Assembly: GCF_030732865.1 (NCBI RefSeq)
Contig: NZ_JASHKB010000026.1
Location: forward strand, 1 to 57,402
DNA from: Roseitalea sp. MMSF_3546
Lineage (GTDB): Bacteria > Pseudomonadota > Alphaproteobacteria > Rhizobiales > Rhizobiaceae
Direction: 5' to 3'
DNA length: 57,402 nucleotides
Position numbers and translations under genes: made by a program. How positions within the stretch are numbered: position 1 is the first letter of the stretch; each line of letters starts with the position of its first letter. The notes beneath the pieces are model-generated. The model was not told the origin of the DNA. It was given only the letters and a program-made list of their open reading frames with translations, and did not search any database. Positions 28,206 through 52,751 of this stretch are shown here, in pieces.

Positions 28206-28403
28206 GTGAAGTTCGGGTTCGATCACCCCATGTTCAAGCCGCTCTGGGTGCGCATCGCGGTTGTCGCCGTGGCGGGTCTGTGGGGATTGTTCGAATTGTC
28301 GACGGGCGCCTATCTGTGGGCGCTGATCTTCCTGGCGCTGGCGGGCGTGGCCTTTCATGGCCTGTTCATCGCCTACGAGCCACCCGAAACCGACAGGGAC
28401 TGA
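28206..28403 (+). CDS. Small two-helix membrane protein (DUF3329-like)
   Basis: 65 aa if the GTG is used, which follows an AGGGAAAGG ribosome site at the right distance; ATG starts at 28164 or 28185 would give up to 79 aa. The sequence begins KFGFDHPMFKPLWVRIAVV and has two hydrophobic helices (IAVVAVAGLWGLFELSTG and WALIFLALAGVAFHGLFI) and a short acidic tail. The opening resembles DUF3329-type proteins, but I am not certain of the family. Its end overlaps the converging uxuB gene by 31 bp. Confidence 0.65.
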   Translation: MKFGFDHPMFKPLWVRIAVVAVAGLWGLFELSTGAYLWALIFLALAGVAFHGLFIAYEPPETDRD

Positions 28404-29809
28404 ACCGCGCGCACCACATCGGCCCGGAAGTCGGTCGCTTCGGCCAGTTCGCCGAACACGGCGCGAATGGAAACCATCGCTTCGGCAAAGTCCGGCCCGC
28501 CGGGCGCATGGGTCCGGGCGATCTCGACGAACCGCCCGGACATGGGATCGTCGACCGCGCCGCCCCTTTCGGCGACATAGGCGATCCAGGCGGCGACCGC
28601 GCGCGTCAGGCGCTCGTGCGAGGCGCCGGCCTTGCGTCTGTCGGCGATGGTGGCCAGCAGGCGCTGCGGCACCTTCTGGCTGCCATCCATGGCGATCTGC
28701 GCGGTGCGGTGCCTGAGCGCCGCGTTGGCGAAGCGGTCGGCGAGCGCACGCGCATAGGCGCCAAGATCGGTATCGGGCACGTCCAGCGTGGGGACGATCT
28801 CCTCGGCCCACATCGCCTGCACGAAATCGGCGATCGCCGCATCGCCGACCGCCTCGGCCACGGTCTGGTGGCCGGCAAGCTGACCCAGATAGGCGATCGC
28901 CGAATGCGCGCCGTTGAGCATGCGCAGCTTCATCGCCTCGAACGGGGCGACATCGGCGACAATCTGCGCGCCAACGGCGCCGAAGTCGGGGCGCGGGCCG
29001 CCGAAACCGTCCTCGATCACCCATTGGCTGAACGGCTCGGTGACCACCGGCCAGGCATCGTCGAGCCCGGTCAGCGCCGCCATCGCCGCGCGGTCGGCGT
29101 CGGTCGTCGCCGGCACGATGCGGTCGACCATGGTGCTCGGAAAGGCGACGTTTCCGGCGATCCAGTCCGACAGCGCCGCATCGCTCAGCGCGGCGAACTG
29201 GGCGAGGACGCGTTTCGTCACATGCCCGTTCTCCGGCAGGTTGTCGCAGGACAGCACGGTGAAGGGCGCAATGCCGCGCGCGCGCCGCATCCGGATCGCG
29301 GCGACCAGCAGGCCCGGTGCCGAGTGCGGCGCGTCCGGGTTTTCAAGATCGGCGCGCACGGCGCGATTGTCCGCATCGAGATTGGCAGTGGCAGGGTCGT
29401 GGCAATAGCCCTTTTCGGTCACCGTCAGCGAAACGATGCGGATGCGCGGATCGGCGAGCCGTTCGATCAGGGCGGCCGGGTCGGCGCCGGCGTGGATCAC
29501 CTCCAGCACCGAACCGATGATGCGCGCGCACGTGTCATCGCCCTCGCGCACGCCCAGCGTATAGAGCCCGTCCTGCGGCGTCAGCGCCTCGGCCATGTCG
29601 GGCCGGCGCAGGCTCGCCCCGACGATGCCCCAGCCGGGATCGGCCGCCAGTATGTCGTCGACATAGACCGCCTGGTGCGCGCGGTGGAAATTGCCGATCC
29701 CAAGATGCACGATACCGGGCGTGACGCGCGCACGATCATGGGCCGGCCGGCGCACATCGGCGCTGGCGCGGTCAACGGTGGCGTTGCTCAGGCGCGGACG
29801 GTCGGTCAT
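28373..29809 (-). CDS. uxuB: Fructuronate reductase / mannitol dehydrogenase family protein
   Basis: 478-aa polyol-specific long-chain dehydrogenase. The NAD-binding opening GIVHLGIGNFHRAHQAVYVDD, the central NLPENGHVTKRVLAQFA (family motif DNLPxNG), MVDRIVPATT and the catalytic-region KLRMLNGAHSAIAYLG are intact. It overlaps the uxaC gene by 4 bp, and uxuA is present 19 kb away, so D-fructuronate to D-mannonate reduction is the most likely reaction. A general mannitol or arabinitol dehydrogenase is the alternative by family but less likely by context. Confidence 0.9.
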   Translation of the reverse strand: MTDRPRLSNATVDRASADVRRPAHDRARVTPGIVHLGIGNFHRAHQAVYVDDILAADPGWGIVGASLRRPDMAEALTPQDGLYTLGVREGDDTCARIIGSVLEVIHAGADPAALIERLADPRIRIVSLTVTEKGYCHDPATANLDADNRAVRADLENPDAPHSAPGLLVAAIRMRRARGIAPFTVLSCDNLPENGHVTKRVLAQFAALSDAALSDWIAGNVAFPSTMVDRIVPATTDADRAAMAALTGLDDAWPVVTEPFSQWVIEDGFGGPRPDFGAVGAQIVADVAPFEAMKLRMLNGAHSAIAYLGQLAGHQTVAEAVGDAAIADFVQAMWAEEIVPTLDVPDTDLGAYARALADRFANAALRHRTAQIAMDGSQKVPQRLLATIADRRKAGASHERLTRAVAAWIAYVAERGGAVDDPMSGRFVEIARTHAPGGPDFAEAMVSIRAVFGELAEATDFRADVVRAVQSLSVSGGS

Positions 29810-31221
29810 CGGTCAAATCCATAGGCACGGCGGGCGAGATTGACGGTCAGGTCCTCGGCCAGTGCGAACGCCTCGTCCTCGCGCAGGCGGTGGTCGGCGA
29901 CGCGCTCGGCCAGGAAGGCGCAGTCGATGCGCCGCGCCATGTCGTGCCGGGCCGGGATCGAGGGAAAGGCGCGCGTGTCGTCATTGAAGCCGACCGTGTT
30001 GTACAATCCCGCCGTTTCGGTGGTCAGTTCGCGAAAGCGCCTGATGCCGTCGGGGCTGTCGAAGAACCACCAGGCCGGGCCGAGCTTCAGGCACGGATAC
30101 ACGCCGGCCATCGGCGCCAGTTCGCGCCCATACGCCGTCTCGTCGAGCGTGAAGACGATGACGGTCAGACCCGGCGCGTGACCGACCGCATCGAGCATCG
30201 GCTTGAGCGCGCCGACATAATCGGTCGGCATCGGAATGTCGAAGCCCTTGTCGCGGCCGAACGCCTTGAAGATGTGCGCGCTGTGATCGCGCCACGAGCC
30301 CGGATGAATCTGCATGACCATACCGTCCTCGACGCTCATCTTCGCCATCTCGGTCAGCATCTGCGCGCGGAACAGCGCCGCATCGCCCTTGTCCGCGCGC
30401 CCGCTGCGCAGCCGGTCGAAGATCGCCTCGCATTCGGCGCGCGCAAGGTTCGCCGTTCGCGCCGAGGCGAGGCCATGATCGGTCGCCGTCGCGCCGTGGT
30501 CGCGGAAGTAGGCGCGCCGGGCACGATGGGCATCGAGATACCCCGCCCATGTGCCAATGTCGCAGCCGGTCACGGCGCCGAATGCATCCAGATTGGCAGC
30601 GAAATCCTCATGGTCGGGATCGATCAGCGCATCGGGCCGATAGGTGGTCACCACCCGGCCCGGCCAGCCGCTGGCGGCAATCGCCCGGTGACGGCGCAGA
30701 TCGTCGAGCGCCCCCTCGGTTGTCGCCAGGACCTCGATGCCGAAGCGTTCGAACAGCGCGCGTGGCCGATAGGCGTCGGTCTTCAGCCGCGCGTCGATCG
30801 CCGCGTAGCAGGCCTCCGCATTGTCAGGACCAAGCGGCTCGGTCAGCCCGAACAGCGTCTCGAAGGTGTGATCGAGCCAAAGCCGCGTCGGCGTGCCGGC
30901 AAACAGGTGGTAGTGGGCGGCGAAGACGCGCCAGATGGCGCGCGGATCGGTCTCGACCGGCCCGCCGTCGCGGCGCGCGATGCCAAGGCTTTCCAGCGCC
31001 ACGCCCTGGCTGTGCAGCATGCGGAAGATGTAGTGGTCGGGCACGATGAGCAGCCGCGCCGGGTCGGGGAACGGTGCATTGTCGGCGAACCAGGCCGGAT
31101 CGCAATGGCCGTGCGGACTGACGATCGGCAGGCCGGCGACGTGGTCGTAGAGCCGTCGGGCGATGGCGCGCACGCCCGGATCGGCCGGCAACAGGCGGTC
31201 GGGATGGTTGAGGGCAGCCAT
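29806..31221 (-). CDS. uxaC: Glucuronate isomerase (uronate isomerase)
   Basis: 471 aa, the standard UxaC length; amidohydrolase-fold isomerase converting D-glucuronate to D-fructuronate (and galacturonate to tagaturonate). Metal-ligand histidines are visible in GLPIVSPHGHCDPAWFADN near residue 35, and MQIHPGSWRDHS, VGFNDDTRAFPSIPARHDM and the ASGWPGRVVTTYRPD region fit the family. It is the first gene of the uxaC-uxuB pair and starts 90 bp after the fur/mur gene on the same strand. Confidence 0.95.
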   Translation of the reverse strand: MAALNHPDRLLPADPGVRAIARRLYDHVAGLPIVSPHGHCDPAWFADNAPFPDPARLLIVPDHYIFRMLHSQGVALESLGIARRDGGPVETDPRAIWRVFAAHYHLFAGTPTRLWLDHTFETLFGLTEPLGPDNAEACYAAIDARLKTDAYRPRALFERFGIEVLATTEGALDDLRRHRAIAASGWPGRVVTTYRPDALIDPDHEDFAANLDAFGAVTGCDIGTWAGYLDAHRARRAYFRDHGATATDHGLASARTANLARAECEAIFDRLRSGRADKGDAALFRAQMLTEMAKMSVEDGMVMQIHPGSWRDHSAHIFKAFGRDKGFDIPMPTDYVGALKPMLDAVGHAPGLTVIVFTLDETAYGRELAPMAGVYPCLKLGPAWWFFDSPDGIRRFRELTTETAGLYNTVGFNDDTRAFPSIPARHDMARRIDCAFLAERVADHRLREDEAFALAEDLTVNLARRAYGFDR

Positions 31222-38503: not shown

Positions 38504-38525
38504 AAAAACCGGGCGCCGCGCGCCC
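38504..38525 (-). terminator. Intrinsic terminator of the sugar/uronate operon
   Basis: On the minus strand, GGGCGC-GCG-GCGCCC is followed by GG and five T, 8 bp after the stop of the lactonase-like gene. This is a standard Rho-independent terminator and marks the 3' end of the long operon that begins near 50 kb. Confidence 0.8.
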
Positions 38526-38532
38526 GCACGGC

Positions 38533-39342
38533 TCACGTGCCCGGCGGCGGCCCGGCCACCTCCCGGGCGAAGGCGCGGACGATGTTGGCCAGCGCCTCGG
38601 GCCGTTCGACACATGGAATATGGCCGCAATCGGTCAGCACATCATAGCGCGCATCGGGGATCAGCTTGGCCATCTCGCCCACCACTTCGGGCGGCGTCGA
38701 GCCGTCCTGATCGCCGACGACGCAGGCGGCCGGCACGGTCAGCGCCCGCGCGATGTCGGTGAAATCGGCATCGCGAATGGCCGCGCAGGTGCCCGCATAT
38801 CCGGCCGGCGGCTGGCGCACCAGCATGTTCCGGTATCCGGCAAGCTCGGCATTGGCCGGATGGCGAAACTCGGGCGTGAACCAGCGTTCGAGCACCGGCT
38901 CGGCGAGCGCGGCGATGCCGCCGGTCTGGACGGTCTCGATCCGCTCGTTCCACACCGCCTCGCTGCCGATCCTGGGCGCGGTGTCGCACAGCACCAGCGC
39001 GCGCACCAGTTCGGGCCGGCTGCCGGCGAGCCCGAGCGCGATCAGCCCGCCCACCGACAGCCCGCAGACGATCGCCTGGCTGACCGAAAGATGGTCGAGC
39101 AGGCCGGCCAGATCGCCCACATGATCATCCATCGCATAGGGCGCCTCGCCCACATCCGAAAGCCCGTGACCGCGCTTGTCATACATCACGAGCGCGAAAT
39201 CGCCGACCAGCCGCACGATCACGTCGCGCCAGATGCGGAAATCGGTGCCCAGCGCGTTGGCGAACACGATCGTCGGCTTGCCCTCGGCCGCCCCGATCAC
39301 CTGAAAGTGCAGCGTGACGCCGTTGATGTTCGCGAACTGCAT
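38533..39342 (-). CDS. 3-oxoadipate enol-lactonase-like alpha/beta hydrolase
   Basis: 269 aa with the PcaD pattern: INGVTLHFQVIGAAEGKPTI at the start, NALGTDFRIW oxyanion region, MYDKRGHGLSD, nucleophile elbow CGLSVGGLIALGL (Ser about residue 95), VGDQDGSTPP (Asp) and DCGHIPCVERPE (His near residue 240). By sequence it would be called pcaD, but there are no other beta-ketoadipate genes here; it is the last gene of a sugar oxidoreductase operon, 8 bp after a Gfo/Idh/MocA gene. Hydrolysis of a sugar lactone made by those dehydrogenases is therefore a serious alternative. Confidence 0.82.
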   Translation of the reverse strand: MQFANINGVTLHFQVIGAAEGKPTIVFANALGTDFRIWRDVIVRLVGDFALVMYDKRGHGLSDVGEAPYAMDDHVGDLAGLLDHLSVSQAIVCGLSVGGLIALGLAGSRPELVRALVLCDTAPRIGSEAVWNERIETVQTGGIAALAEPVLERWFTPEFRHPANAELAGYRNMLVRQPPAGYAGTCAAIRDADFTDIARALTVPAACVVGDQDGSTPPEVVGEMAKLIPDARYDVLTDCGHIPCVERPEALANIVRAFAREVAGPPPGT

Positions 39343-39350
39343 GGTGGCTC

Positions 39351-40430
39351 CTATCCGGTCAGCATTGGCGCCCAGTCCGAACAGATCGGTTCGGCCCGGT
39401 CAAGCGGCAGCGCGACGGTCGCGCCCGTCCGCGCGGCCCGGTAGACCGCGGCCACCAGTTCGATCGAGCGCACGCCGTCATCGGCGGTGACCAGCGCAGC
39501 GGGTCGGCCCTCCAGATGATCGGCGATGGCGGCGAACTGGCCGGCATAGCCGACCGGGCGCGCCGCGACCGTCTCGGCCATCTCGGCCAGCGCGTCGTCG
39601 AGCGCCACCTGGGTCAGCGGTGCGCGCGCCTCGAACGTCCAGTCATCGGCGCCGGGCGCATAGGGATTGCGCCCGCTTTCGGCCGTCAGCGTCTCGAAGA
39701 CGAACCGCAGGCGCGAGGTGTCGCGCGCCCCGCCCAGCGTGATCGATGAGGTCACCAGCGCGCCCGAGGCGCAGCGCATGGCAAGCGCGGCGCAGTCCTC
39801 GGTCTCGATGGCGTTGACGCGCGTGTCGACCATGGCCGACACGGCCGTCACCGGCCCCAGGAATCCGCTGACGAGGTCATGCGCGTGAATGGCATGGCCG
39901 AGCACCGCCCCGCCGCGTTCGCTGGCCCATTTGCCGCGCCAAGGCACGGCGTAATAGTCCGCGCCGCGGTTCCAGTGCGTCTCGATTGTGGCGACCAGCG
40001 GCGTGCCGGCCAGCCCGCGCCGCTGCAGTTCGGCCAGTTGGTAGAGCCCGTGCCCGTAGCGGTACTGGAAGATCGGCGCGAGCAGCCTGCCGGTGTTGCG
40101 CGCCGCATCGGCCATGCGGTCGGCCTCGACGACCGAACCGGCCAGCGGCTTCTCGCAGATCACGTGCTTGCCCGCGGCGAACGCCTCGAGCGCGACCGGC
40201 GCGTGCAGATGCGGCGGCAGGCAGATGTCGACAATGTCGATATCGGGGTCGGCCAGCACCTCCGGCAGCGCCTCGACCGCCGCGCAGTGATCGTCATGGG
40301 CGGCGACGCGTTCGGCCCTGGCCCGATCGAGATCGCAGACGGCAACGACACGGAACCGCGCGCGCAATTGCCCATAGGCGAGCATATGCGCCTCGCCGAT
40401 CCCCGCGCCGGCGATCGCGACCTTGAGCAT
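39351..40430 (-). CDS. Gfo/Idh/MocA family oxidoreductase (A)
   Basis: 359-aa NAD(P)-dependent oxidoreductase. Rossmann motif KVAIAGAGIGEAHMLAY at the N-terminus, the family CEKPLAGSVVEADRM (EKP, active-site Lys near residue 97) and GGAVLGHAIHAHDLVSGFLG, which supplies the catalytic His/Asp. The substrate-binding sheet ends with ARPVGYAGQFAAIADHLEG. Its ATG shares one base with the stop of the preceding family member. The third of three tandem paralogues that differ strongly from each other, so three distinct oxidations or reductions of one sugar skeleton are likely. Exact substrate unknown. Confidence 0.9.
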   Translation of the reverse strand: MLKVAIAGAGIGEAHMLAYGQLRARFRVVAVCDLDRARAERVAAHDDHCAAVEALPEVLADPDIDIVDICLPPHLHAPVALEAFAAGKHVICEKPLAGSVVEADRMADAARNTGRLLAPIFQYRYGHGLYQLAELQRRGLAGTPLVATIETHWNRGADYYAVPWRGKWASERGGAVLGHAIHAHDLVSGFLGPVTAVSAMVDTRVNAIETEDCAALAMRCASGALVTSSITLGGARDTSRLRFVFETLTAESGRNPYAPGADDWTFEARAPLTQVALDDALAEMAETVAARPVGYAGQFAAIADHLEGRPAALVTADDGVRSIELVAAVYRAARTGATVALPLDRAEPICSDWAPMLTG

Positions 40431-41455
40431 CACGTCCCTTTCAGCTTGCCGATGCGCGCCGCCTGCGCCTGCGCCTTGAGCGCCAGTTCCATCACCTTCA
40501 GGCAGTGCGTCTGCGTCATGGCCGTCTCGGTGCGGTTCTGCACGTCGGCGGCGAGCCGTTCGAAATAGGTCAGCCTTTCGCCCGAGGCGTCGAAATATTC
40601 GCAGCGCTCGCCATTGACCAGATAGACATGGTCGGTGCCCTCGCGCCCGCACAGATCGACATATTTGCGCAGTTCGATCGTGCCCTCGGTCCCCAGAATG
40701 ACCAGCCGGCCGTCGCCCCAGCTCGGCAGCGCGTCGGGCGTGTACCAGTCGACCCGGATATAGCCGGTGCCCTTGTCCGAGCGCAGCAGGATCTCGCCGA
40801 AATCCTGAAGACCCGGATCGTCCGGATTGGCGAAATTGCCGACCGCGGACGCAACGATCTGCGCATCATCGGAGCCGGTGAAGAACAGGAACTGGTCGAT
40901 CTGGTGCGAAGCGATGTCGCAGATGATCCCGCCATACTGGTCCTCGACGAAGAACCAGTCCGGCCGCAAGTGCCGGTTCAGCCGATGCGGGCCCAGGCCG
41001 ACGGTCTGCACCACCTGCCCGACCGCGCCCTCGGCCACCAGCTCGGCTGCCTTCTGCACGGCCGGCACCTCGAAACGCTCGGAAAAGTCGATCGACCAGA
41101 TGCGCCCGGTCTCGGCGACGGTCCGCCTGATCGCCTCGAGCTGGTCCAGCGTGGTGCAGCCGGGCTTGTCGGTCATCACGTCCTTGCCGGCCTGCATCGC
41201 CTCGATGGCGCGCTCGGCGCGCCGCGCCGGAATGTCGGCGATCAGGATCAGGTCGATCTCCGGGTCGTCGAGCAGCGCCCTGCGGTCGGCGACGCGCGGC
41301 ACGTGCGGGAAGCGCTTGAGGAACCCGGCGACCGGCTGCGGCTCGCCATCGGTCCACCAGCCCTTGCAGGTCGCACCGGCATCGAGCATGCCCTGCAACT
41401 GGCCATAGATGTGCCGGTGATCGACGCCGATCACCCCGACGCTGAGCTGTGCCAT
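40430..41455 (-). CDS. Gfo/Idh/MocA family oxidoreductase (B)
   Basis: 341 aa. The N-terminal motif is modified (VGVIGVDHRHIYGQLQGML, lacking the usual GxGxxG glycines), the active-site motif is VMTDKPGCTT instead of EKP, and GGIICDIASHQIDQFLFFTG carries the His. WYTPDALPSWGDGRLVILGT shows the C-terminal sheet. The altered dinucleotide loop suggests unusual cofactor handling or a tightly bound NAD. It lies 3 bp after paralogue C and overlaps paralogue A by one base. Confidence 0.88.
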   Translation of the reverse strand: MAQLSVGVIGVDHRHIYGQLQGMLDAGATCKGWWTDGEPQPVAGFLKRFPHVPRVADRRALLDDPEIDLILIADIPARRAERAIEAMQAGKDVMTDKPGCTTLDQLEAIRRTVAETGRIWSIDFSERFEVPAVQKAAELVAEGAVGQVVQTVGLGPHRLNRHLRPDWFFVEDQYGGIICDIASHQIDQFLFFTGSDDAQIVASAVGNFANPDDPGLQDFGEILLRSDKGTGYIRVDWYTPDALPSWGDGRLVILGTEGTIELRKYVDLCGREGTDHVYLVNGERCEYFDASGERLTYFERLAADVQNRTETAMTQTHCLKVMELALKAQAQAARIGKLKGT

Positions 41456-41458
41456 GGA

Positions 41459-42495
41459 TCAGGCTCCGTTGGAGATTTCGACGGCGCGCCGCTCGCGCGA
41501 GGAGGCGACCAGCGCGTCGATGAGATAGTGGACATGCAGCGCATCGCGCCCGGTCACGGCCGGCTCGCGCCCGGCCGCGATCGCCTCGATGAAATCGGTG
41601 ATCAGGTCGCGGTGCCAGTCGAAGGGAAACGCCATCGGGTCGGCGCCACCGCCCGTGCCGTCGGCGCTTTCGCCGAAACGTTCGCTACGCCCGTCGCGCC
41701 AGTTGACCGTCAGCGTGCCCGATTGCAGATGCGCGCTCGCCTTTTCGCAGTCGAGCGTGATCGATTCGGCCTCGCCGGGAAAGGCGGCGACGGTCGCCAT
41801 CACCGCGCCCATCGCGCCGTTGCGGAAATGCAGCCCGCCGGCGACGAAATCCTCCGATTCCATCTCGTGGAAAGGCGTCGTGCCGGCAACGGCCTGCACC
41901 TCGGCGACCGGGCCGGCGATCGACAGCATCAGATCGAGCGTGTGGATGGCCTGGCTGATCAGCACGCCGCCGCCGTCGCGCGCATAGCTGCCCCGGCCCG
42001 GCTCGTCATAATAGCTCTGCTCGCGCCACCAGGGCACCGAGGCGCGCGCCAGCCCGATCGCGCCCAGCGCGCCCGAGTGAACCAGCTTGTCGAGCTTGCG
42101 CGAGGCCTGCCGGAACCGGTGCTGGAAGACGATGCCGAGCTGCACCCCCGCCGCCTCGCAGATCGCCACGATCTCCTCGGCCGCTTCCGAAGTCCGCTCG
42201 ACGGGTTTTTCCATCAGGATGTGCTTGCCCGCCCCGGCAAAGCGCCGCACCAGGTCGAGCCTCTGATTGGGCGGCGTGATGATGATGACCGCCCTGACCG
42301 CCGGATCGTCCGCCAACGCCTCCAGCGAGGCCGCCTCGGCAAATCCGTGCTCGGCGCAGAAGGCCGCCCGCTTGTCGGCCCCGCGCGAATAGACGCCGCG
42401 CACCGCGATGCAGTCGTCCAGCGATCTCAGCGCCTGCGCGTGCGGCTTGGCGGCCATGCCCGTGCCGACCACGCCGATCCCGATACGCCCCGCGC

Positions 42496-42499
<4 letters not shown>
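41459..42499 (-). CDS. Gfo/Idh/MocA family oxidoreductase (C)
   Basis: 346 aa with canonical GVVGTGMAAKPHAQALRSL, ILMEKPVERTSEAAEEIV and FQHRFRQASRKLDKLV, followed by WWREQSYYDEPGRGSYARDG and GGVLISQAIHTLDLMLSIAG with the catalytic His/Asp. The WWR...YY and RG pattern resembles 3-dehydrogenases of sugar nucleotides and glycosides (WlbA-like). It overlaps the ATPase gene by 4 bp. In the operon it may carry out a C3 oxidation that activates a glycoside for cleavage, by analogy with known 3-keto-glycoside routes; this is inference. Confidence 0.9.
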
Positions 42500-43626
<1,127 letters not shown>

Positions 43627-43644
43627 ACCGCCTCCCCGTGCATG

Positions 43645-44661
43645 CTATCGGCTGCGGGCCATGGCGGCCAGCCTCGGCTCGGCGCGCTGCAGCCGCATGG
43701 GCGGCAGGCCGCGCAGGATCTGGCGCACATCGTCGACGATCATGGACCGCATCGCCGCATAGGTCGAGGCCAGCCCGCCGGCCAGATGCGCCGAGAACAA
43801 CGCGTTGCGCGTGTCCCGCCACGGGGCGTGCGCCGGCACCGGCTCGTCGGGAAAGACGTCGACGGCGACGCGCAGCCGGCCGCTGTCGGCTTCGGCCATG
43901 AGCGCCTCGAAATCGACCACCTCGGCGCGCGAGGCAAGAACGAGGCTTGCACCCTCGGGCATGCGCGCCAGCCGGTCGGCGCCCAGGAAGCCTTCGTTCT
44001 GCGCGGTCACCCCGGCGAGCACGAAGACCACGCGGCGCGATGAAAGCAGCGCGTCGAGCGCCATCGGCTCTAGATCGCAACTTTCCAGATAGGCGTCCGA
44101 CAGGCCCGGATCGTGCACCGCGATCCGGGACGTGAACGCTCGCAGGAGCGGCACCAGCGCCCGGCCCAGATTGCCGTAGCCGATCAGCCCGACCGGCGCG
44201 CCGAACAGGCTGTAGGCGGCGCGGTTGCCCTCCCCGCCATAGCGCTCGCTGCCCTTGCGGAAGGCGGCATCGGCCCGCGGCAGCCCGCGCGCCAGCGCGA
44301 TCGCCTGGCCCAGGCAGTATTCGGCGACCGGCGGGCCCATCACCGGCGCCACGGTCAGCACCTGCACGCCCTTGGCCTGCGCGTGCGCATAGTCGATGTT
44401 CGGCTCCCAGTTCGCCTTGACGTTGACGATCGCCTTCAGATTCGCCGCCCGGTCGAGCCGGTCGCGGTCCATGGCGGTCTGGCCGATGATGATCGCCACC
44501 TCGTCGAGCACGCTCTCGACCAGCGCGTCGGGCGCGCGCGCGCCGAAATGGGTGACCAGCCGGCCCATCGAGCGCAGCGCCGCCTCGGTGTCCGGCGTGA
44601 ACACCATCGCCTCGGTTCGAGGGAACGGATCGACGAAGATGAGCGGCAGGGGCGCGGTCAT
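43645..44661 (-). CDS. D-isomer-specific 2-hydroxyacid dehydrogenase
   Basis: 338 aa, D-3-phosphoglycerate dehydrogenase-like fold. NAD motif VGLIGYGNLGRALVPLLRAF near residue 150, catalytic Arg in LVLASRAEVVDFEALM, acidic DVFPDEPVPAHAPWR and the catalytic His in LFSAHLAGGLASTY. It probably interconverts a 2-hydroxy acid and a 2-oxo acid derived from the imported sugar; a role in serine synthesis is unlikely in this setting. The ATG overlaps the MalG-type permease stop by 4 bp and the gene sits between transporter genes, which is unusual and shows tight functional linkage. Confidence 0.9.
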   Translation of the reverse strand: MTAPLPLIFVDPFPRTEAMVFTPDTEAALRSMGRLVTHFGARAPDALVESVLDEVAIIIGQTAMDRDRLDRAANLKAIVNVKANWEPNIDYAHAQAKGVQVLTVAPVMGPPVAEYCLGQAIALARGLPRADAAFRKGSERYGGEGNRAAYSLFGAPVGLIGYGNLGRALVPLLRAFTSRIAVHDPGLSDAYLESCDLEPMALDALLSSRRVVFVLAGVTAQNEGFLGADRLARMPEGASLVLASRAEVVDFEALMAEADSGRLRVAVDVFPDEPVPAHAPWRDTRNALFSAHLAGGLASTYAAMRSMIVDDVRQILRGLPPMRLQRAEPRLAAMARSR

Positions 44662-45743
44662 TTCATGCCCGAGGAAGCGATGCCGGTGGTGATGAAGCGC
44701 TGCAGGAAGGCGAAGACCACGGTCACCGGGATCAGCGCCACGACCGTCATCGCCAGCACGAAATGCCATTGCACGTTCAGTTCGCCCTGGAAGGCGTTCA
44801 GTCCGATCTGCAGCGTGTAGACCTCCGACCGGTTGAGCACGATCAGCGGCCACAGGAAATCGTTCCAGCGCCACATCACCGAGAATATCGCCAGCACCGC
44901 GATCGCCGGCAGCGACAAGGGCAGCACGATGCGCCAGTAGATCTGCCATTCGGACGCCTTGTCCATGCGCGCCGCCTCGATCAGGTCGCGCGGAATCGTC
45001 AGCATGTATTGCCTGAGCAGGAACACGCCCGTGGGCGTCGCGCAGCCCGGTATGATCACCGCCCACAGCGTGTTGACCATGCCAAGCTGGGTGACGACCA
45101 GATAGGTCGGCACCAGGATGATGGTGATCGGGATCATCAGCGTGCCGATGACGAACAGCATCACCGCGTTGCGCCCCCGGAACTCGTAGATCGCCAGCCC
45201 GTAGGCGGCCATCGAGTTGATCAGCAGCGTGATCAGCGTCGCCGCCGCCGTCACGATGACCGAATTGTTCAGGTATGTCAGGAAGTTGAACGTCTCGAGC
45301 GGCTTGGTATAGTTCTCCCAGGCGACACGGAACTCGCGGATCGGCTCGCGGTCGTCGATCGACACCTGGATGCGCTCTTCAGGGTTTTCGGGATCGACCA
45401 TCTGGCTCATGATGCCGATGCGCCGGATCTGCGCCATCTGCCGGACGGTGCCGTCCTCGAAGGTCACCTCGAACAGTGGCAGCGGCTCGTCGAAGCCCTG
45501 CACCTCCACCTGCACCTGGCCGAGCGGCAAAAGCGTCGGCGGAAACTCCTGAAGGCCGGCCTGCGTCTTGAACGAGGACAGCACCAGCCAGACCACCGGC
45601 AGGAACATCAGCGCCACGCCGAAGGCGAGGTAGACATAGGTGAAGATGTCGGTCCAGTGCCAGCCACGCCCGTTCGGCCCGCCGCGCCGTGCGGTCGCAA
45701 GGCCCCCGATCGTCCGGCTCGGCGTGGCGGCGATGTCGGCCAT
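44658..45743 (-). CDS. Sugar ABC transporter permease, MalG type, with enlarged first extracytoplasmic loop
   Basis: 361 aa, against about 275-300 for most MalG-like subunits. TM1 is YVYLAFGVALMFLPVVWLVL; the following loop of about 115 residues carries a beta-rich insert (LPLFEVTFEDGTVRQMAQIR, ERIQVSIDDREPIREFRVAW); TM2 begins NNSVIVTAAATLITLLINSM. The EAA motif EAARMDKASEWQIYWRIVLPL for ATPase contact is intact. Overlaps the MalF-type gene by one base. The insert could contact the binding protein, as the large loop of MalF does. Confidence 0.92.
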   Translation of the reverse strand: MADIAATPSRTIGGLATARRGGPNGRGWHWTDIFTYVYLAFGVALMFLPVVWLVLSSFKTQAGLQEFPPTLLPLGQVQVEVQGFDEPLPLFEVTFEDGTVRQMAQIRRIGIMSQMVDPENPEERIQVSIDDREPIREFRVAWENYTKPLETFNFLTYLNNSVIVTAAATLITLLINSMAAYGLAIYEFRGRNAVMLFVIGTLMIPITIILVPTYLVVTQLGMVNTLWAVIIPGCATPTGVFLLRQYMLTIPRDLIEAARMDKASEWQIYWRIVLPLSLPAIAVLAIFSVMWRWNDFLWPLIVLNRSEVYTLQIGLNAFQGELNVQWHFVLAMTVVALIPVTVVFAFLQRFITTGIASSGMK

Positions 45744-46789
45744 CAGCCCTGGTCCCTCCTGCGCACGACCGCCAGTTGCAGCAATGTCAGGACGAACAGC
45801 ACCACGCCCAGGACCACCGAGGCGGCCGAGGCCAGGCCGAAATTCTGCACCTGGCTGGCAAAGCCGGTGGTGTAGATGTACTGGACGATGAACTGCGTCG
45901 CCGTGCCCGGCCCGCCGCCGGTCAGCACGAACACCTCGTCGAACACCTGCACCGACTTGATCAGCGCCAGCACGATGACCACGAGCATGTTCGGCCACAA
46001 AAGCGGCAGCGTGATGCGCCAGAACACGCGCTCGGGCTTGGTGCCGTCCATCTCGGCGGCTTCGTAAAGGTCCGGCGGGATCGCCTGCAGCCCGGCCAGC
46101 AGGATCAGCGTGTAAAAGCCCATATTGGCCCAGATCGACACGAAGATCGCCCAGAACATCGCCCATTGCGGATCGACGAAGAACAGGATGCGATCGAGCC
46201 CCAGCCCGACAAGGCCGGCATTGAGAACGCCGTCGCGCAGCAGGATCCACTTCCAGATCAGCGCGACCACGACCGGCGACAGCAGCACGGGGAAGAAGAA
46301 CGCCGCTCTGTAGAACCCGCGATAGCGGATGTCCCGATTGAGGATCAGGGCGGTGATCAGCGAGAACAGCACCATGAGCGACACCTGGAAGGTGACGAAC
46401 ACGACCGTGTTGTAGATGCCGCGCCAGAACCGGTCCTCGCGGCAGGTCGTCGGGTCGAAATGGTTGGCGCAGGCGGCCAGATATTCGTACTGCTCAAGGC
46501 CCACATAGGGCCGGTCGGTCAGGAAGAGGTTGGTGCCGCCGGTGACCGAGAAGGCGAAATTGATGAACAGCGGAATGATGACGAACAGGCCGAAAAAGAC
46601 CATGTTCGGCAGGATGAAGAAATAGGGCATCGCGCCGATGCCGAAGATCCGCTGCACGAAGCGGAACGGGATCTCCAGTATGGCAAAGACCACGCGCGCC
46701 GGGATCGCCGCGACCGCCTTGGCACGGTCGGTCAGCGTCACCGGTTCGGGCGGTGCGATGTCGGTTGAAGCCATGGTCCGATCCATCAC
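45743..46789 (-). CDS. Sugar ABC transporter permease, MalF type
   Basis: 348 aa with six transmembrane helices (FILPNMVFFGLFVIIPLFIN, VVFVTFQVSLMVLFSLITAL, AAFFFPVLLSPVVVALIWKW, and others) and the EAA motif EAAEMDGTKPERVFWRITLPL. The loop after the first helix contains AACANHFDPTTCRED, a cysteine pair suited to a periplasmic disulfide. Separated from the binding-protein gene by about 220 bp of RNA-structure-forming sequence. Works with the MalG-type and MalK-type subunits. Confidence 0.93.
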   Translation of the reverse strand: MMDRTMASTDIAPPEPVTLTDRAKAVAAIPARVVFAILEIPFRFVQRIFGIGAMPYFFILPNMVFFGLFVIIPLFINFAFSVTGGTNLFLTDRPYVGLEQYEYLAACANHFDPTTCREDRFWRGIYNTVVFVTFQVSLMVLFSLITALILNRDIRYRGFYRAAFFFPVLLSPVVVALIWKWILLRDGVLNAGLVGLGLDRILFFVDPQWAMFWAIFVSIWANMGFYTLILLAGLQAIPPDLYEAAEMDGTKPERVFWRITLPLLWPNMLVVIVLALIKSVQVFDEVFVLTGGGPGTATQFIVQYIYTTGFASQVQNFGLASAASVVLGVVLFVLTLLQLAVVRRRDQG

Positions 46790-46851
46790 CTTCGAACCTG
46801 GCGCGAACGCACGTCGTCAACAGCGCTGAGACGGCATTTCATCGCCACGTC

Positions 46852-46991
46852 ATACCGGGACTGGCCCCGGTATTTAGACTGCGGTTGCCCGCTCGGATTG
46901 CGGGACACCCGCGACATGCGCGGGCGCCCCGCAATGGCGAAGCAGACGGCCACTTTCGGATCAGGTGCACGAAACAAGGCCGAAAGCGGCC
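46852..46991 (-). other. Intercistronic stem-loops between binding-protein and permease genes
   Basis: Three separate hairpins fill the 220-bp gap. Nearest the binding-protein gene is a 5-bp GGCCG/CGGCC stem (46978-46991), followed on the minus strand by a T-rich stretch. Next is a nested 8-bp and 6-bp stem at 46897-46935, and last an 8-bp stem at 46852-46873. Such structures usually protect the upstream message or partly terminate transcription, so that the binding protein is made in excess over the membrane subunits. Confidence 0.65.
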
Positions 46992-47009
46992 ATTGGCCCA
47001 CAGGCCCGA

Positions 47010-48296
<1,287 letters not shown>

Positions 48297-48348
48297 GGGT
48301 ATCTCCTCCCGAAAAGATAGCTGATCGTCGGTCACGCCACGCCTTGGC

Positions 48349-49080
48349 CTATGGTTCGCCCGGTGGCGGTTGCGCCGGATCGTGGCCCGACGCGCCCGCG
48401 GTTTCAAGTACGGAATCGATGTGTGCGGCCATTCGTGCCGCCGCGGTCTCGCCCTGGCCCGCCTCGATCGCCGCGACGATGCCCAGATGCTGGCGATAGG
48501 CGGCCAGCGAGCGCCCTTCGATGGACGACATCAGCACCAGCCTTTCCCGGTCGATATGCGCCTTCATCGTCTGCACCAGCGACCAGCCATTGGGCGCGCC
48601 GGCGAGCGCGGCGAGTTCGGCATGGAACGCCTCGTCATGGGCAAAGAAGGTCCGGTAGTCGTCGCGCTCGGCGGCCAGGCGCTGCTGGTCGAGAAGCGGC
48701 CGCAGCGCCGCCAGATCGGCGCTGCGCGCGGCGAGCCGGCGCACGACGGCGCATTCGATGGCCCGGCGCACGAACAGTGCCTCGTCGAAACGGGCTCCAT
48801 CGCGCGGCGCGACCACGGTGCCGGCCTGCGGGCGCACCTGGACAAGACCCTCGCGCGCCAGCCTCTGTATCGCCGCGCGCAGCGGCGTGCGGCTGACCGA
48901 AACGATGCGGGCGAGGTCGGCCTCGCTGACCAGCGTGCCCGGCGGCAGGCGGCCATCGATGATGGCGGCGCGCAACAGCGCGTAGATCTGCGGCGCGATC
49001 GGGCTGTCGCGCGCCACCGATGCCCCGGCGAGCGCGCCGCCAAGGTCGAAGGCGGCATCATGCGGCGCCTTGCGCGGCAT
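48349..49080 (-). CDS. GntR family transcriptional regulator (FadR/FCD subfamily)
   Basis: 243 aa. The winged helix (about residues 28-95) contains AIIDGRLPPGTLVSEADLAR and SRTPLRAAIQRLAREGLVQV. The C-terminal FCD domain has metal-ligand-like residues in FFAHDEAFHAELAALAG, YRQHLGIVAAIEAG and AARMAAHIDSVL. Regulators of this type next to uxuA (UxuR/ExuR-like) sense hexuronate or aldonate intermediates. Its start overlaps the end of uxuA by 23 bp. The likely operator lies at 50309-50322. Confidence 0.92.
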   Translation of the reverse strand: MPRKAPHDAAFDLGGALAGASVARDSPIAPQIYALLRAAIIDGRLPPGTLVSEADLARIVSVSRTPLRAAIQRLAREGLVQVRPQAGTVVAPRDGARFDEALFVRRAIECAVVRRLAARSADLAALRPLLDQQRLAAERDDYRTFFAHDEAFHAELAALAGAPNGWSLVQTMKAHIDRERLVLMSSIEGRSLAAYRQHLGIVAAIEAGQGETAAARMAAHIDSVLETAGASGHDPAQPPPGEP

Positions 49081-50278
49081 GACCCTTTTCGACGGCCGCC
49101 ATGATGCCGCGCAGTTCGGCCAGCCCCTTGAGCCGGCCGATGGCCGGATAGCCGGGCTGGGCGCCGCGCGCCGCATCGTCGAGGATCTCGTGGCCGTGAT
49201 CGGGCCGCATCGGGATCTCGCAATCGTGCCGCCCCTCGGCCCGGCGCCGCGCCTGCTCGGCCATCAGCGCGGCGACGACGGCGACCATGTCGGTGCCGCC
49301 TTCAAGATGCTCGTCCTCGACAAACGAGCACGGCACGCCCTCGGTGGTGCGCGTGACGTTGCGCAGATGGACGAAATGGATGCGCGGGCCGAACTCACGC
49401 ACCATGGCGGCAATATCGTTGTCCGGCCGGGCGCCGAACGAGCCCGCGCACAATGTCAGTCCGATGGCCGGGCTGCTAACGGCGGCGAAGGCGTCGCGCA
49501 CATCCCCGGCGGTCGACCACACGCGCGGCAGGCCGAGCAGCGCAAATGGCGGATCGTCGGGATGGCAACACAGCCGCAGGCCGAGCCGTTCGGCCGTGGG
49601 CGCCACCTCGGCGAGGAAATCGACATGGTGCCGGCGCAGCCGGTCGGCGTCGATCTGCGCGTAGTCGGCCAGCTTGTCGCGCACATCGGCCGTCGTCCAG
49701 CGCTCGGCCGAGCCGGGCAGTCCGGCGGTCACGTTCTCGGCGAGCGCCTGCTTGCGCTCACCGCTCATATGGGTGAACCGGTCGGCGGCCTGCCGGACGA
49801 TCGGCTCGTCATAATCGCCCTGCGCGCCCGGCCGGCGCAATATGTGCATGTCGAAGGCGGCAAAATCGACGAGGTCGAAGATCATCGCCGTGCCGCCGGT
49901 CCGCGTCGGCGCGCGCAGATCGGTGCGCGTCCAGTCGAGCACCGGCATGAAGTTGTAGCAGATCGTCGCGATGCCGCATCGCGCCAGGTTTTCCAGGCTT
50001 TGCCTGTAACGCTCGATATCCCCGCGCCAGTCGCCCGACTGCGTCTTGATCGCCTCGGAGACCGGCAGGCTCTCGACGACGTCCCAGCTCAGCCCGGTCG
50101 GCGTGCCGTCGGCTTTGCGGCCGACCTCGGCCTGCCGTTTTTCGATCTCGGCCACCGGCCACACCGCGCCGGTCGCGATATGGTGCAGGGCAGTGACGAT
50201 GCCCTGCGCACCGGCCTGCCGCGCATCGGCGAGCGTGACCTTGTCGACCGGCCCGAACCAACGCCATGTCTGCCGCAT
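49058..50278 (-). CDS. uxuA: Mannonate dehydratase
   Basis: 406 aa, TIM-barrel dehydratase turning D-mannonate into 2-keto-3-deoxy-D-gluconate. The family opening MRQTWRWFGPVDKVTLADAR, the LSWDVVESLPVSEAIK segment, IATICYNFMPVLDWTRTDLR, the metal-ligand LRLCCHPDDPPFALLGLPR and LCAGSFGARPDNDIAAM, and HLRNV are all present. First gene of the long sugar operon; its partner genes uxaC and uxuB lie 18-20 kb away on the same strand. No KDG kinase or KDPG aldolase is in the window. Confidence 0.96.
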   Translation of the reverse strand: MRQTWRWFGPVDKVTLADARQAGAQGIVTALHHIATGAVWPVAEIEKRQAEVGRKADGTPTGLSWDVVESLPVSEAIKTQSGDWRGDIERYRQSLENLARCGIATICYNFMPVLDWTRTDLRAPTRTGGTAMIFDLVDFAAFDMHILRRPGAQGDYDEPIVRQAADRFTHMSGERKQALAENVTAGLPGSAERWTTADVRDKLADYAQIDADRLRRHHVDFLAEVAPTAERLGLRLCCHPDDPPFALLGLPRVWSTAGDVRDAFAAVSSPAIGLTLCAGSFGARPDNDIAAMVREFGPRIHFVHLRNVTRTTEGVPCSFVEDEHLEGGTDMVAVVAALMAEQARRRAEGRHDCEIPMRPDHGHEILDDAARGAQPGYPAIGRLKGLAELRGIMAAVEKGHAAQGAA

Positions 50279-50308
50279 GAACTGCCCTCTTTGCTCTTTT
50301 CGAGGGAC

Positions 50309-50322
50309 ACTAGTATACCAGT
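50309..50322. promoter_or_regulatory. uxuA: Probable GntR operator upstream of uxuA
   Basis: ACTAGTATACCAGT is a 14-bp inverted repeat with a single mismatched pair and contains the GT-N2-AC core and TnGT...ACnA arrangement of FadR-subfamily GntR operators. It lies 31 bp before uxuA and the same distance before the divergent hydrolase, so one regulator dimer can control both. Confidence 0.65.
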
Positions 50323-50352: not shown

Positions 50353-51306
50353 TTGCCTGCGATCGACCGTGAACGGGTGCGGCATCTGCTCGGCGTTGGC
50401 GGCGGGACGCAGGCGGCGGGGACGCTCGACATCGTGTCCGCCACAGCCGAAGACGGCTTCGTGCGCCACGCCGTTGCGCTCGCCATCGATGACCGGGCCA
50501 TTGCCGGCACGCTGCTGCTGCCAGAGGACACGAAGCGTCCCGTGCCCGCCGTGCTCTACTGCCACGCCCATGGCAACCGCCATGACATAGGCGCGGCCGA
50601 ACTCATGGACGGGCGCCCGGCGCTGCAATCGCCTTACGGCCCGGCCCTGGCGCGGCGCGGCCATGCGGTGCTGTGCATCGACATGCCCGGCTTCGGCACG
50701 CGGCAGGCGGAGGGCCCCGAAAGCGCGCTCGCCAAGGCCGCCCATTGGCGCGGTCGGACCCTGTTCGGTCAAATGCTCGACGATCTGACCGCCGCGCTCG
50801 ATGCGCTTGCAACTCACCCGGCGGTCGATCCGACCCGCATCGCCACGCTCGGCCTGTCCATGGGCGCGACCCATGCCTACTGGCTCGCCGCGCTGGATGA
50901 GCGCATTGCCGCCTGTGCGCATCTGTGCGCGTTCTCGAACATCGGTCCGCTGATCGCGGCCGGCGCCCACGATCTGCACGGACCATACATGACCGTGCCC
51001 GGCCTTCTGGCCCATGGCGACATGGCCGACATCGCCGCGCTGATCGCCCCGCGTCCGCAAATGGTCGCAGCGGGCCTCAAGGATCCGCTGACCCCGCCCG
51101 AGGCCCTGAATCCGGCCCTCAGCCGATTGCGCCAGGCCTATGATTCACAGGGCGTTTCCGATGCCCTCACCGTGCTGACATCGCCGGACACCGGCCATGA
51201 AGAAACACCCCGGTTGCGCATGGCGGTGTTGGGGTTTCTGGAGCGGCACTTGAGCGGCGCATCCGCCTCGTCCTTCGAGGCTCGCCAATCATCACCCTCA
51301 TCCTGA
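50353..51306 (+). CDS. Alpha/beta hydrolase (dienelactone hydrolase/acetyl xylan esterase-like)
   Basis: 317 aa from a TTG start preceded by GGACGAG. The hydrolase core includes PAVLYCHAHGNRHDIG (oxyanion region), LCIDMPGFGTRQ, nucleophile GLSMGATHAYWLA (Ser about residue 176), Asp in AAGLKDPLTPPEAL and His in PDTGHEETPRLR. The last 14 or so residues (ASSFEARQSSPSS) are encoded by a palindromic repeat, so the ancestral end was probably near FLERHLSG. Divergent from uxuA across a GntR-type site, so deesterification of an uronate- or xylan-derived substrate is plausible. Confidence 0.82.
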   Translation: MPAIDRERVRHLLGVGGGTQAAGTLDIVSATAEDGFVRHAVALAIDDRAIAGTLLLPEDTKRPVPAVLYCHAHGNRHDIGAAELMDGRPALQSPYGPALARRGHAVLCIDMPGFGTRQAEGPESALAKAAHWRGRTLFGQMLDDLTAALDALATHPAVDPTRIATLGLSMGATHAYWLAALDERIAACAHLCAFSNIGPLIAAGAHDLHGPYMTVPGLLAHGDMADIAALIAPRPQMVAAGLKDPLTPPEALNPALSRLRQAYDSQGVSDALTVLTSPDTGHEETPRLRMAVLGFLERHLSGASASSFEARQSSPSS

Positions 51307-52687: not shown

Positions 52688-52751
52688 GGGATTTCCTCCA
52701 TTGTCTCGCTATAGTCACGCCATGCGACGCCATCGATCAGGAGCAAGCGCC

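What the first reader, a model, noticed from the sequence alone, without database searches (positions are those of the whole stretch)
38504..50322. Long uronate-linked operon with three divergent Gfo/Idh/MocA enzymes: candidate undescribed sugar pathway
One minus-strand unit runs uxuA - gntR - binding protein - MalF - MalG - 2-hydroxyacid dehydrogenase - MalK - Gfo C - Gfo B - Gfo A - lactonase-like hydrolase and ends at a clear terminator; most joints overlap by 1-4 bp. Three unlike Gfo/Idh/MocA oxidoreductases in tandem are typical of routes that oxidise and later re-reduce a sugar (inositol or 3-keto-glycoside chemistry), yet no myo-inositol genes are present and the end product feeds mannonate dehydratase. 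My hypothesis: import of a glycoside or uncommon sugar acid, oxidation by C and A, lactone opening by the hydrolase, and delivery to D-mannonate or a C2-epimer, then KDG. No glycosidase is visible, so cleavage would be oxidoreductive.
Basis: partly seen in the sequence, partly recalled or inferred. Interest (0 to 1): 0.7.

Follow-up and report, generated by a model that had tools for sequence, protein, structure and literature searches.

The report
Probable glucuronide-breakdown operon, three oxidoreductases
A bacterial operon, repeated in many soil and marine relatives, appears to import a sugar acid joined to another molecule, cut it by oxidising the sugar instead of using an ordinary sugar-cutting enzyme, and feed the freed glucuronic acid into a known pathway; the middle enzyme has no known function and is the part worth testing.

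Summary
The operon is real: uxuA-gntR-SBP-MalF-MalG-2-hydroxyacid dehydrogenase-MalK-GfoC-GfoB-GfoA-PcaD, minus strand. The three Gfo/Idh/MocA genes are a conserved module. Among 115 distinct loci selected for gfoB, gfoA is present in 83 and gfoC in 81; uxuA, uxaC, uxuB or another uronate isomerase is in the same stretch (up to about 21 kb) in 56. A GntR-type operator (ACYRGTATACYRGT) recurs upstream of these genes.

GfoC is the sister of a clade holding the structure deposited as P2B11 glucuronide-3-dehydrogenase; GfoC and GfoA share a motif with it and with WlbA, a uronate C3-dehydrogenase. None reaches the inositol or levoglucosan dehydrogenase cut-offs. Best reading: imported glucuronide is oxidised at C3, loses its aglycone, is re-reduced to glucuronate and enters UxaC-UxuB-UxuA. 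GfoB, which lacks the GxGxxG cofactor motif, may be the cleaving enzyme.

Chemistry is inferred; nothing was assayed.

The parts
50309..50322 (.). GntR/FCD-type operator palindrome ACTAGTATACCAGT
   Evidence: only site in the window at up to 2 mismatches; consensus recurs upstream of module genes in 25 of 121 loci, 12 shuffled palindromes give none there
49058..50278 (-). uxuA, D-mannonate dehydratase
   Evidence: TIGR00695 460.7 bits vs cut-off 199.55; Pfam UxuA
48349..49080 (-). GntR/FCD regulator
   Evidence: Pfam GntR + FCD
47010..48296 (-). ABC sugar-binding protein (SBP_bac_1)
   Evidence: same family in 44 of 115 distinct loci; PDB relatives, mostly named sugar-binding proteins, only at E 5e-13 and weaker
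46978..46991 (-). terminator-like hairpin between SBP and MalF
45743..46789 (-). MalF/UgpA-type permease
   Evidence: start may be 46741
44658..45743 (-). MalG/UgpE-type permease
43645..44661 (-). D-2-hydroxyacid dehydrogenase family protein; accessory
   Evidence: Pfam 2-Hacid_dh_C; in 19 of 115 distinct loci
42496..43626 (-). MalK/UgpC-type ATPase
   Evidence: NF008653 UgpC 471.5 bits vs cut-off 432
41459..42499 (-). GfoC, candidate glucuronide (uronoside) C3-dehydrogenase
   Evidence: sister to P2B11 glucuronide-3-dehydrogenase + f29, support 96/91; profile E 2.4e-36 to 8tdi and 4e-52 to WlbA 3q2k; fold top hit WlbA
40430..41455 (-). GfoB, module core; Gfo fold without GxGxxG; candidate 3-keto-uronoside-cleaving enzyme
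   Evidence: GxxHxH in place of GxGxxG, K97, D180, H184 kept; structure model mean pLDDT 92.7, closest 3u3x and 2p2s, both deposited as putative oxidoreductases
39351..40430 (-). GfoA, second candidate uronoside C3-dehydrogenase / 3-keto-uronate reductase
   Evidence: profile E 2.4e-54 to WlbA 3q2i and 8.6e-27 to 8tdi; motif in 87 of 87 relatives
38533..39342 (-). PcaD-type enol-lactonase; probably a passenger
   Evidence: TIGR02427 343.3 bits vs cut-off 255.85; clusters with no protein of the other loci
38510..38526 (-). terminator-like hairpin followed by T5
   Evidence: the folded stretch is no more stable than shuffles
50353..51306 (+). alpha/beta hydrolase (AXE1/esterase-like), divergent, shares the operator; accessory
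   Evidence: Pfam; family in 17 of 115 distinct loci, beside gfoC, gfoB or gntR in several
29806..31221 (-). uxaC, glucuronate isomerase (separate unit in the same window)
28373..29809 (-). uxuB-like mannitol-dehydrogenase family, probable fructuronate reductase

Best explanation
The operon imports a glucuronide (D-glucuronic acid joined to an aglycone) through a CUT1-type ABC transporter and cleaves it by C3 oxidation instead of hydrolysis. GfoC (and GfoA) oxidise C3 of the uronic acid with NAD; the 3-keto group makes H2 acidic, the C1-O bond is broken by elimination and water addition, and the 3-keto-glucuronate is reduced back to D-glucuronate, probably by the same dehydrogenases. GfoB, conserved with either dehydrogenase and lacking the usual dinucleotide motif, is the best candidate for the cleavage step. 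Glucuronate then passes through UxaC, UxuB and UxuA to 2-keto-3-deoxygluconate. The GntR protein controls the unit from the palindrome at 50309-50322, shared with a divergent esterase-like protein that may trim the substrate. Shown: gene content, conservation, operator conservation, ancestry of A and C, absence of GxGxxG in B. Inferred: substrate, every chemical step, the role of B, the regulator's binding.
For: Tree of 50 Gfo proteins: f29 (a family in ten of the fetched loci) with P2B11 glucuronide-3-dehydrogenase 100/100; GfoC sister to both 96/91. An f29 member matches 8tdi over nearly its full length, E 8.5e-68, and in L139 an f29 gene is directly upstream of gfoB. In the window's genome GfoC and then GfoA are the two best matches to that f29 protein. 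Motif W-x-R-x3-YY-x(2-6)-R[GA]: A 87/87, C 81/84, f29 10/10, B 0/121, four other Gfo families 0/57, other predicted proteins 0/1738; by eye the same stretch is in WlbA and P2B11 and not in DgpA or GFOR. WbpB/WlbA-type enzymes oxidise C3 of a UDP-linked uronic acid (PMC10622841, passages). C and B sit with uronate genes: of 115 distinct loci, 51 of the 81 with gfoC have uxuA, uxaC, uxuB or a Bh0493-like isomerase in the stretch, and 5 of the 34 without gfoC. L142 is a compact DctP-DctQM-uxuA-C-B-uxaC-uxuB unit. In ten loci, mostly marine single-cell genomes, a family whose one scored member matches the Bh0493 uronate isomerase at E 2.6e-88 directly follows gfoB. Operator: 39 intergenic and 4 genic hits, 37 of the 39 within 250 nt upstream of module genes, in 25 of 121 loci; 12 shuffled palindromes gave 0-2 intergenic and 0 upstream. 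It resembles ChIP-seq sites of the R. sphaeroides hexuronate GntR regulator at uxuA (PMC4344238, passages). Precedent: NAD-dependent sulfoquinovosidases replace classical glycosidases with transient C3 oxidation (PMC10755693, passages).
Against: No lyase or hydratase of the kinds I recall for the published pathway (AP_endonuc_2, DUF1080) is in the operon. GfoB keeps K97 and the D180-x3-H184 pair of a dehydrogenase site, so it may still bind NAD(P) and be a reductase. TRAP-linked C-B loci (L142, L146, L055/L056, L164) suggest a small free acid, not a bulky glycoside. Loci with gfoB-gfoA but no gfoC mostly lack uxuA, uxaC and uxuB (27 of 32), so the gfoA branch may act on something else. In a separate class-wide draw 6 of 17 fetched loci had gfoB with neither A nor C. 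The window's uxaC-uxuB lack the operator. The genome holds one GH2-type protein elsewhere that could be a glucuronidase. In the tree, four f29 rows, three C rows, one f11 row and the window's A row were flagged for odd letter make-up, and 8tdi entered without its first 50 residues.
Confidence: 0.55

Rival explanations
1. C and B (or A and B) are an oxidation-reduction pair that epimerises a rare free uronic acid (for example L-iduronate or another hexuronate) to D-glucuronate or D-fructuronate; no glycosidic bond is cut.
For: TRAP transporters, which usually carry monomeric acids (recalled), are beside the module in L142, L146, L055/L056 and L164; B keeps K97, D180 and H184.
Against: The ABC systems are of the CUT1 type usual for glycosides (recalled); A and C descend with enzymes that act on C3 of glucuronyl groups, and C3 epimers of glucuronate are not common nutrients (recalled); B lacks GxGxxG.
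Confidence: 0.2
2. GfoB alone is a self-contained NAD-dependent glycosidase of the GH109/GH188 kind, and A and C serve other steps.
For: GfoB's model finds GH188 structures 8qc8 and 8qc5 among its Foldseek hits; such enzymes are common in Roseobacter-clade bacteria (PMC10755693, passages).
Against: Only 16-17% identity to GH188 structures; canonical dinucleotide motif absent; B is nearly always with A, C or f29 in the main sample (111 of 115 distinct loci), though with A or C in only 11 of 17 loci of the class-wide draw.
Confidence: 0.1
3. The gfoA branch and gfoC branch act on different non-uronate sugars (inositol-like, levoglucosan-like or disaccharide 3-keto routes), and the uxuA link is only co-regulation of sugar acid genes.
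For: 17 of 17 loci with the other binding-protein family (sbp2) lack gfoC; of them 8 carry TetR, 8 another Gfo, 6 DUF993 and 8 an AP_endonuc_2 gene, and only 1 uxuA and 3 uxaC; weak similarity to inositol and levoglucosan dehydrogenases.
Against: Scores far under the curated cut-offs of inositol 2-dehydrogenase (355) and levoglucosan dehydrogenase (650); gfoC link to uronate genes and shared operator.
Confidence: 0.12
4. One reading: oxidation to a lactone, opened by the terminal hydrolase, then delivery to D-mannonate or a C2 epimer.
For: The hydrolase is the last gene, 8 nt after gfoA; the genome has no PcaH, PcaC or CatC partner for it, so its substrate here is open.
Against: It passes the PcaD cut-off, the listed plasmid-borne relatives are 65-68% identical, and it clusters with no protein of the other loci.
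Confidence: 0.03

Closest known systems
Oxidative glycoside breakdown through 3-keto-glycosides, incl. P2B11 glucuronide-3-dehydrogenase (PDB 8tdi; Nasseri et al. 2024, reference seen, paper not held, content and its tie to 8tdi recalled)
   Same: Gfo/Idh/MocA C3-dehydrogenase named for glucuronides; GfoC is its sister group and shares its active-site stretch
   Different: No AP_endonuc_2 or DUF1080 lyase/hydratase in the operon; a Gfo protein without GxGxxG (GfoB) is present instead; tied to the uxuA regulon of Alphaproteobacteria
WlbA/WbpB UDP-GlcNAc-uronate 3-dehydrogenases (3q2k, 3q2i)
   Same: closest solved relatives of A and C by profile and of C by fold
   Different: WlbA is biosynthetic and uses a UDP-sugar; A and C sit in a catabolic operon with a transporter
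GH188 NAD-dependent sulfoquinovosidases
   Same: Gfo-type enzyme replacing a classical glycosidase at the entry of a sugar-acid-like pathway, also in Roseobacter-clade bacteria (PMC10755693, passages)
   Different: single enzyme with catalytic NAD; GfoB is only 16-17% identical to GH188 structures and lacks GxGxxG
Hexuronate (Ashwell) pathway UxaC-UxuB-UxuA with GntR control, as in R. sphaeroides RSP_0489 (PMC4344238, passages)
   Same: uxuA in the operon, uxaC and a uxuB-like gene in the window, similar operator
   Different: extra Gfo module and ABC system upstream of the known steps
Inositol and levoglucosan dehydrogenases
   Same: same superfamily
   Different: all three proteins far below the curated cut-offs

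Membership tests
3-keto-glycoside (oxidative) breakdown, glucuronide type | dehydrogenase of the glucuronide-3-dehydrogenase lineage | tested here: met
   GfoC sister to 8tdi+f29, 96/91; GfoA related more distantly
3-keto-glycoside (oxidative) breakdown, glucuronide type | known lyase/hydratase partner (AP_endonuc_2 or DUF1080; recalled) | tested here: not met
   no such domain above cut-off in the twelve proteins scanned; UxuA scores 30.7 for AP_endonuc_2, under its cut-off of 31.1
3-keto-glycoside (oxidative) breakdown, glucuronide type | C3 oxidation of a glucuronide shown | not testable with these tools
   needs assay
NAD-dependent glycoside hydrolase (GH109/GH188) | canonical dinucleotide motif / bound NAD in the cleaving enzyme | tested here: inconclusive
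   GfoB: GxGxx[GAS] in the first 45 residues 0 of 121, nine of them with truncated starts; but gfo13 also scores 0 of 11 and A 45 of 87, so the pattern is not decisive; bound NAD not testable
Inositol 2-dehydrogenase (TIGR04380) | score over curated cut-off 355 | tested here: not met
   C 113.1, B 62.1, A 93.1 bits
Levoglucosan dehydrogenase (NF052479) | score over curated cut-off 650 | tested here: not met
   C 66.7, B 54.1, A 83.3 bits
Ashwell hexuronate pathway | uxuA, uxaC, uxuB present | tested here: met
   uxuA over cut-off; UxaC and a mannitol-dehydrogenase-family protein in the window; the latter's identity as UxuB rests on family and position
Hexuronate GntR regulon | conserved operator upstream of uronate and module genes | tested here: met
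   not found at the window's uxaC-uxuB; binding itself not tested
3-oxoadipate enol-lactonase (PcaD) | score over curated cut-off 255.85 | tested here: met
   343.3 bits
3-oxoadipate enol-lactonase (PcaD) | beta-ketoadipate pathway partners in the genome | tested here: not met
   no PcaH, PcaC or CatC match; other partners not searched

The most novel reading that the evidence does not exclude
GfoB founds a new enzyme class: a Gfo/Idh/MocA-fold protein that has given up its dinucleotide site and become the lyase/hydrolase of 3-keto-glucuronides, working with a separate, exchangeable C3-dehydrogenase (C, A or f29). The pair would be a two-protein glucuronidase widespread in marine and soil Alphaproteobacteria, with glucuronosylglycerol from glucuronosyl-diacylglycerol lipids as one natural substrate (one locus of 120, L153, carries glpD and glpK, both over their curated cut-offs, in line with gfoB and the same transporter families).
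Probability: 0.2. Interest if true: 0.85.

Novelty: new variant of a known kind. Interest (0 to 1): 0.58.

Why it matters
If right, a large group of marine and plant-associated bacteria can use glucuronides without a classical glucuronidase, through a route whose core gene is labelled in annotated plasmids, where it is labelled at all, only as a Gfo/Idh/MocA family or probable oxidoreductase (40 of 171 records listed). It would name the substrate class of a widespread transporter-operon family, give two structural-genomics entries (3u3x, 2p2s) a function, and possibly add a cleaving enzyme on a fold known for redox chemistry. The conserved operator makes the regulon, and so further substrates, findable.

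Tried and rejected
Standard inositol or levoglucosan dehydrogenases: scores far below cut-off. Lactone route through the last gene: PcaD-type protein without conservation. GfoB as a GH188 member: too distant. O-demethylation of a methylated uronate by the luciferase-like monooxygenase + flavin reductase seen in some loci: kept only as an observation; the one paper search for it gave nothing. glpK/glpD as a general companion: both only in 1 of 120 fetched loci; one more locus gave a 25% identical glpK match. I saw no description of this module in the listings of ten paper searches of an open-access library; Nasseri 2024 and both WlbA structure papers are not held.

Limits. The Fisher test ignores kinship of the loci and includes duplicates; I quote only counts de-duplicated (six contigs had been fetched twice). 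Counts still include those six. Loci were selected for gfoB, so 'gfoB always present' is by construction. Of 50 places, the window and 40 others were used; 9 were not fetched. Of 18 other places, 17 were fetched. Gene calls on fetched loci are from my own codon-usage script; nine of 121 GfoB N-termini were called too short, which accounts for nine of the 14 misses of the GxxHxH pattern. Families of neighbours were named from one representative each. The operator consensus was refined on the loci it was then counted in. The tree's sister relation was not put to an AU test.


Full report
What is there. The window is a whole contig (C18, 57,402 bases) of a 4.05 Mb genome in 63 contigs. The operon is as described, with corrected starts: uxuA 49058-50278, gntR 48349-49080, binding protein 47010-48296, MalF 45743-46789 (or -46741), MalG 44658-45743, 2-hydroxyacid dehydrogenase 43645-44661, MalK 42496-43626, GfoC 41459-42499, GfoB 40430-41455, GfoA 39351-40430, hydrolase 38533-39342. 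A terminator-like hairpin follows at 38526-38510, and another lies between the binding protein and MalF at 46991-46978; the stretch with the first folds no better than its shuffles. Four of ten joints overlap by 1-4 bp, not most. UxaC and a UxuB-like protein are in the window at 28373-31221. A divergent alpha/beta hydrolase starts at 50353 or 50377.

The Gfo genes. The genome has 20 matches to the Gfo N-terminal domain, so Gfo proteins as such are common here; the conservation of this trio is what stands out. gfoB was found in 48 of 297 genomes of the order, counting the window's own, and in 171 of 72,556 plasmid records, 129 of them Rhizobium. I fetched 40 of the 49 other places and 80 named loci from a scan of bacterial genomes, called genes and clustered them. 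After removing six contigs fetched twice, 115 distinct loci including the window remain: gfoA in 83, gfoC in 81, both in 54, A or C or f29 in 111, uxuA in 45, uxaC in 27, uxuB in 23, the divergent hydrolase's family in 17, the hydroxyacid dehydrogenase in 19; the PcaD protein clusters with none. All of A, B, C, uxuA and a transporter protein of the same families are together in 16. Where adjacent, the order is C-B-A: gfoC immediately upstream of gfoB in 81 and gfoA immediately downstream in 84 of 121 loci, with overlapping joints in 52 of 81 and 71 of 84; there are exceptions, such as L128 with B-A-C. In a separate draw over the class, 19 of 385 genomes had gfoB counting the window's own; of 17 loci fetched, A or C was present in 11 and neither in 6. 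So gfoB also lives in other contexts: in three loci of one genus a gene of about 455 aa, an amidohydrolase in the one scanned, directly precedes it.

Link to uronate metabolism. Of 81 distinct loci with gfoC, 51 have uxuA, uxaC, uxuB or the Bh0493-like isomerase family in the fetched stretch; of 34 without gfoC, 5 have. Examples: a TRAP-uxuA-C-B-uxaC-uxuB unit in L142 and uxaC-uxuA-uxuB-C-B in L154. In ten loci, mostly from marine single-cell genomes, a 403-residue family directly follows gfoB; its representative has no Pfam match and matches the Bh0493 uronate isomerase at E 2.6e-88. The loci are related to each other, so these counts are not independent events.

Regulation. The palindrome ACTAGTATACCAGT (50309-50322) lies between uxuA and the divergent hydrolase and is the only site of its kind in the window. 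A first scan of the loci suggested the consensus ACYRGTATACYRGT. With at most one mismatch it has 39 intergenic and 4 genic hits in 121 loci, although only 11% of the sequence is intergenic; 37 of the 39 are within 250 nt upstream of a module gene, in 25 loci, so most loci show none at this stringency. Twelve shuffled palindromes gave 0-2 intergenic hits and none upstream of module genes. The consensus was refined on the same loci, so the count is not a blind test; the shuffles show that it is not base composition. It resembles sites bound by the hexuronate GntR regulator of R. sphaeroides (PMC4344238, passages). The window's uxaC-uxuB have no such site.

What A and C are. Profiles of both families find WlbA (3q2k, 3q2i) first: E 4e-52 and 1e-50 for C, 1e-51 and 2e-54 for A. 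P2B11 glucuronide-3-dehydrogenase (8tdi) follows: E 2.4e-36 for C, third in its list, and 8.6e-27 for A, tenth in its list. The model of C (mean pLDDT 92.1) has WlbA with NADH and UDP-GlcNAcA as top fold hit, though levoglucosan, inositol and other sugar dehydrogenases score almost as well. A tree of 50 proteins puts 8tdi with the f29 family at 100/100 and GfoC beside them at 96/91; GfoA is a separate clade. The solved-structure rows were partial, 8tdi without its first 50 residues; the tool flagged long branches (GFOR, DgpA, gfo13, B) and odd letter make-up in four f29 rows, three C rows, one f11 row and the window's A. An f29 protein matches 8tdi at E 8.5e-68, and in L139 an f29 gene directly precedes gfoB. 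A motif just before the active-site GG is present in A 87/87, C 81/84 and f29 10/10, and absent in B 0/121, f11 0/21, f17 0/17, gfo13 0/11, gfo14 0/8 and 0 of 1,738 other predicted proteins. WbpB/WlbA-type enzymes oxidise C3 of a UDP-linked glucuronic-acid sugar (PMC10622841, passages). That A and C oxidise C3 of a glucuronyl group is an inference from this.

What B is. B is 50-81% identical to its relatives across the order and structurally matches 3u3x (S. meliloti) and 2p2s (Erwinia/Pectobacterium), both deposited as putative oxidoreductases. GxGxx[GAS] is absent in 121 of 121, nine of them with truncated starts; GxxHxH stands there in 107. In the 97 proteins with a clearly complete N-terminus GxGxx[GAS] is absent in all and HxH present in all. 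K97 and D180-x3-H184 are invariant in the 26 aligned rows. The regex also misses other Gfo families (gfo13 0/11, A 45/87), so the absence of the motif is suggestive, not proof of a lost cofactor. Because B accompanies C, A or f29 in turn, I take the dehydrogenase as exchangeable and B as the cleaving partner; a reductase role is the main alternative.

Substrate. Oxidoreductive cleavage by C3 oxidation, elimination, hydration and reduction is described for GH4 enzymes, and GH188 uses transient C3 oxidation (PMC10755693, passages); a similar scheme is proposed for DgpA-like relatives (PMC11239390, passages; there apigenin 7-O-glucuronide was not a substrate of the glucoside enzyme). The aglycone is unknown. 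One locus of 120 (L153) continues the transporter genes into glpD (713 bits, cut-off 360) and glpK (666, cut-off 590), which would fit glucuronosylglycerol; this is one case. The genome has no GH67 match and one GH2-type protein elsewhere; other glucuronidase families were not searched.

The last gene. The hydrolase passes the PcaD cut-off and is the only protein of this genome to do so. Of 299 plasmid records with a relative, the 15 listed are 65-68% identical and four of them are annotated pcaD. No PcaH, PcaC or CatC was found in the genome, so its role here is open, but it is not part of the conserved module.

Verdict. A conserved, apparently undescribed variant of 3-keto-glycoside chemistry serving glucuronate catabolism. 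'Undescribed' rests on the listings of ten searches of an open-access library and is weak evidence. No step of the chemistry was tested.

Noticed in passing
38533-39342: Orphan PcaD: the genome lacks PcaH, PcaC and CatC matches, yet keeps a protein well over the PcaD cut-off at the end of a sugar operon.
   Followed up: partly
L153:2587-11259: gfoB-malK-sbp-malF-malG-glpD-glpK in one line: hint of a glycerol glycoside as substrate.
   Followed up: partly
L101:4467-5678 and nine other loci: Family of about 403 residues (representative without a Pfam match) that resembles the Bh0493 uronate isomerase, directly after gfoB, mostly in marine single-cell genomes.
   Followed up: yes
L083, L086, L089, L111: Luciferase-like monooxygenase, aldo/keto reductase, flavin reductase and the AXE1-like hydrolase stand together upstream of gfoC; a PhyH dioxygenase family stands in Ruegeria loci (L133, L134, L145). 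Role unknown.
   Followed up: no
L069, L070, L107, L167, L168: A further Gfo, DUF993 and an AP_endonuc_2 protein (TetR too in some) recur beside the gfoB-gfoA variant that lacks gfoC.
   Followed up: no
7218-9533, 3192-4028, 1541-3175: Fused FAD_binding_3/Oxidored_FMN protein near tryptophan 2,3-dioxygenase and an AMP-binding enzyme: looks like an anthraniloyl-CoA route (name recalled).
   Followed up: no
51380-55182: Two minus-strand genes whose translations look like the two subunits of a dihydropyrimidine dehydrogenase (recalled; no family search run).
   Followed up: no
L171, L172, L174: In three genomes of one genus a gene of about 455 aa, an amidohydrolase in the one scanned (L174), directly precedes gfoB, without gfoA or gfoC.
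   Followed up: partly
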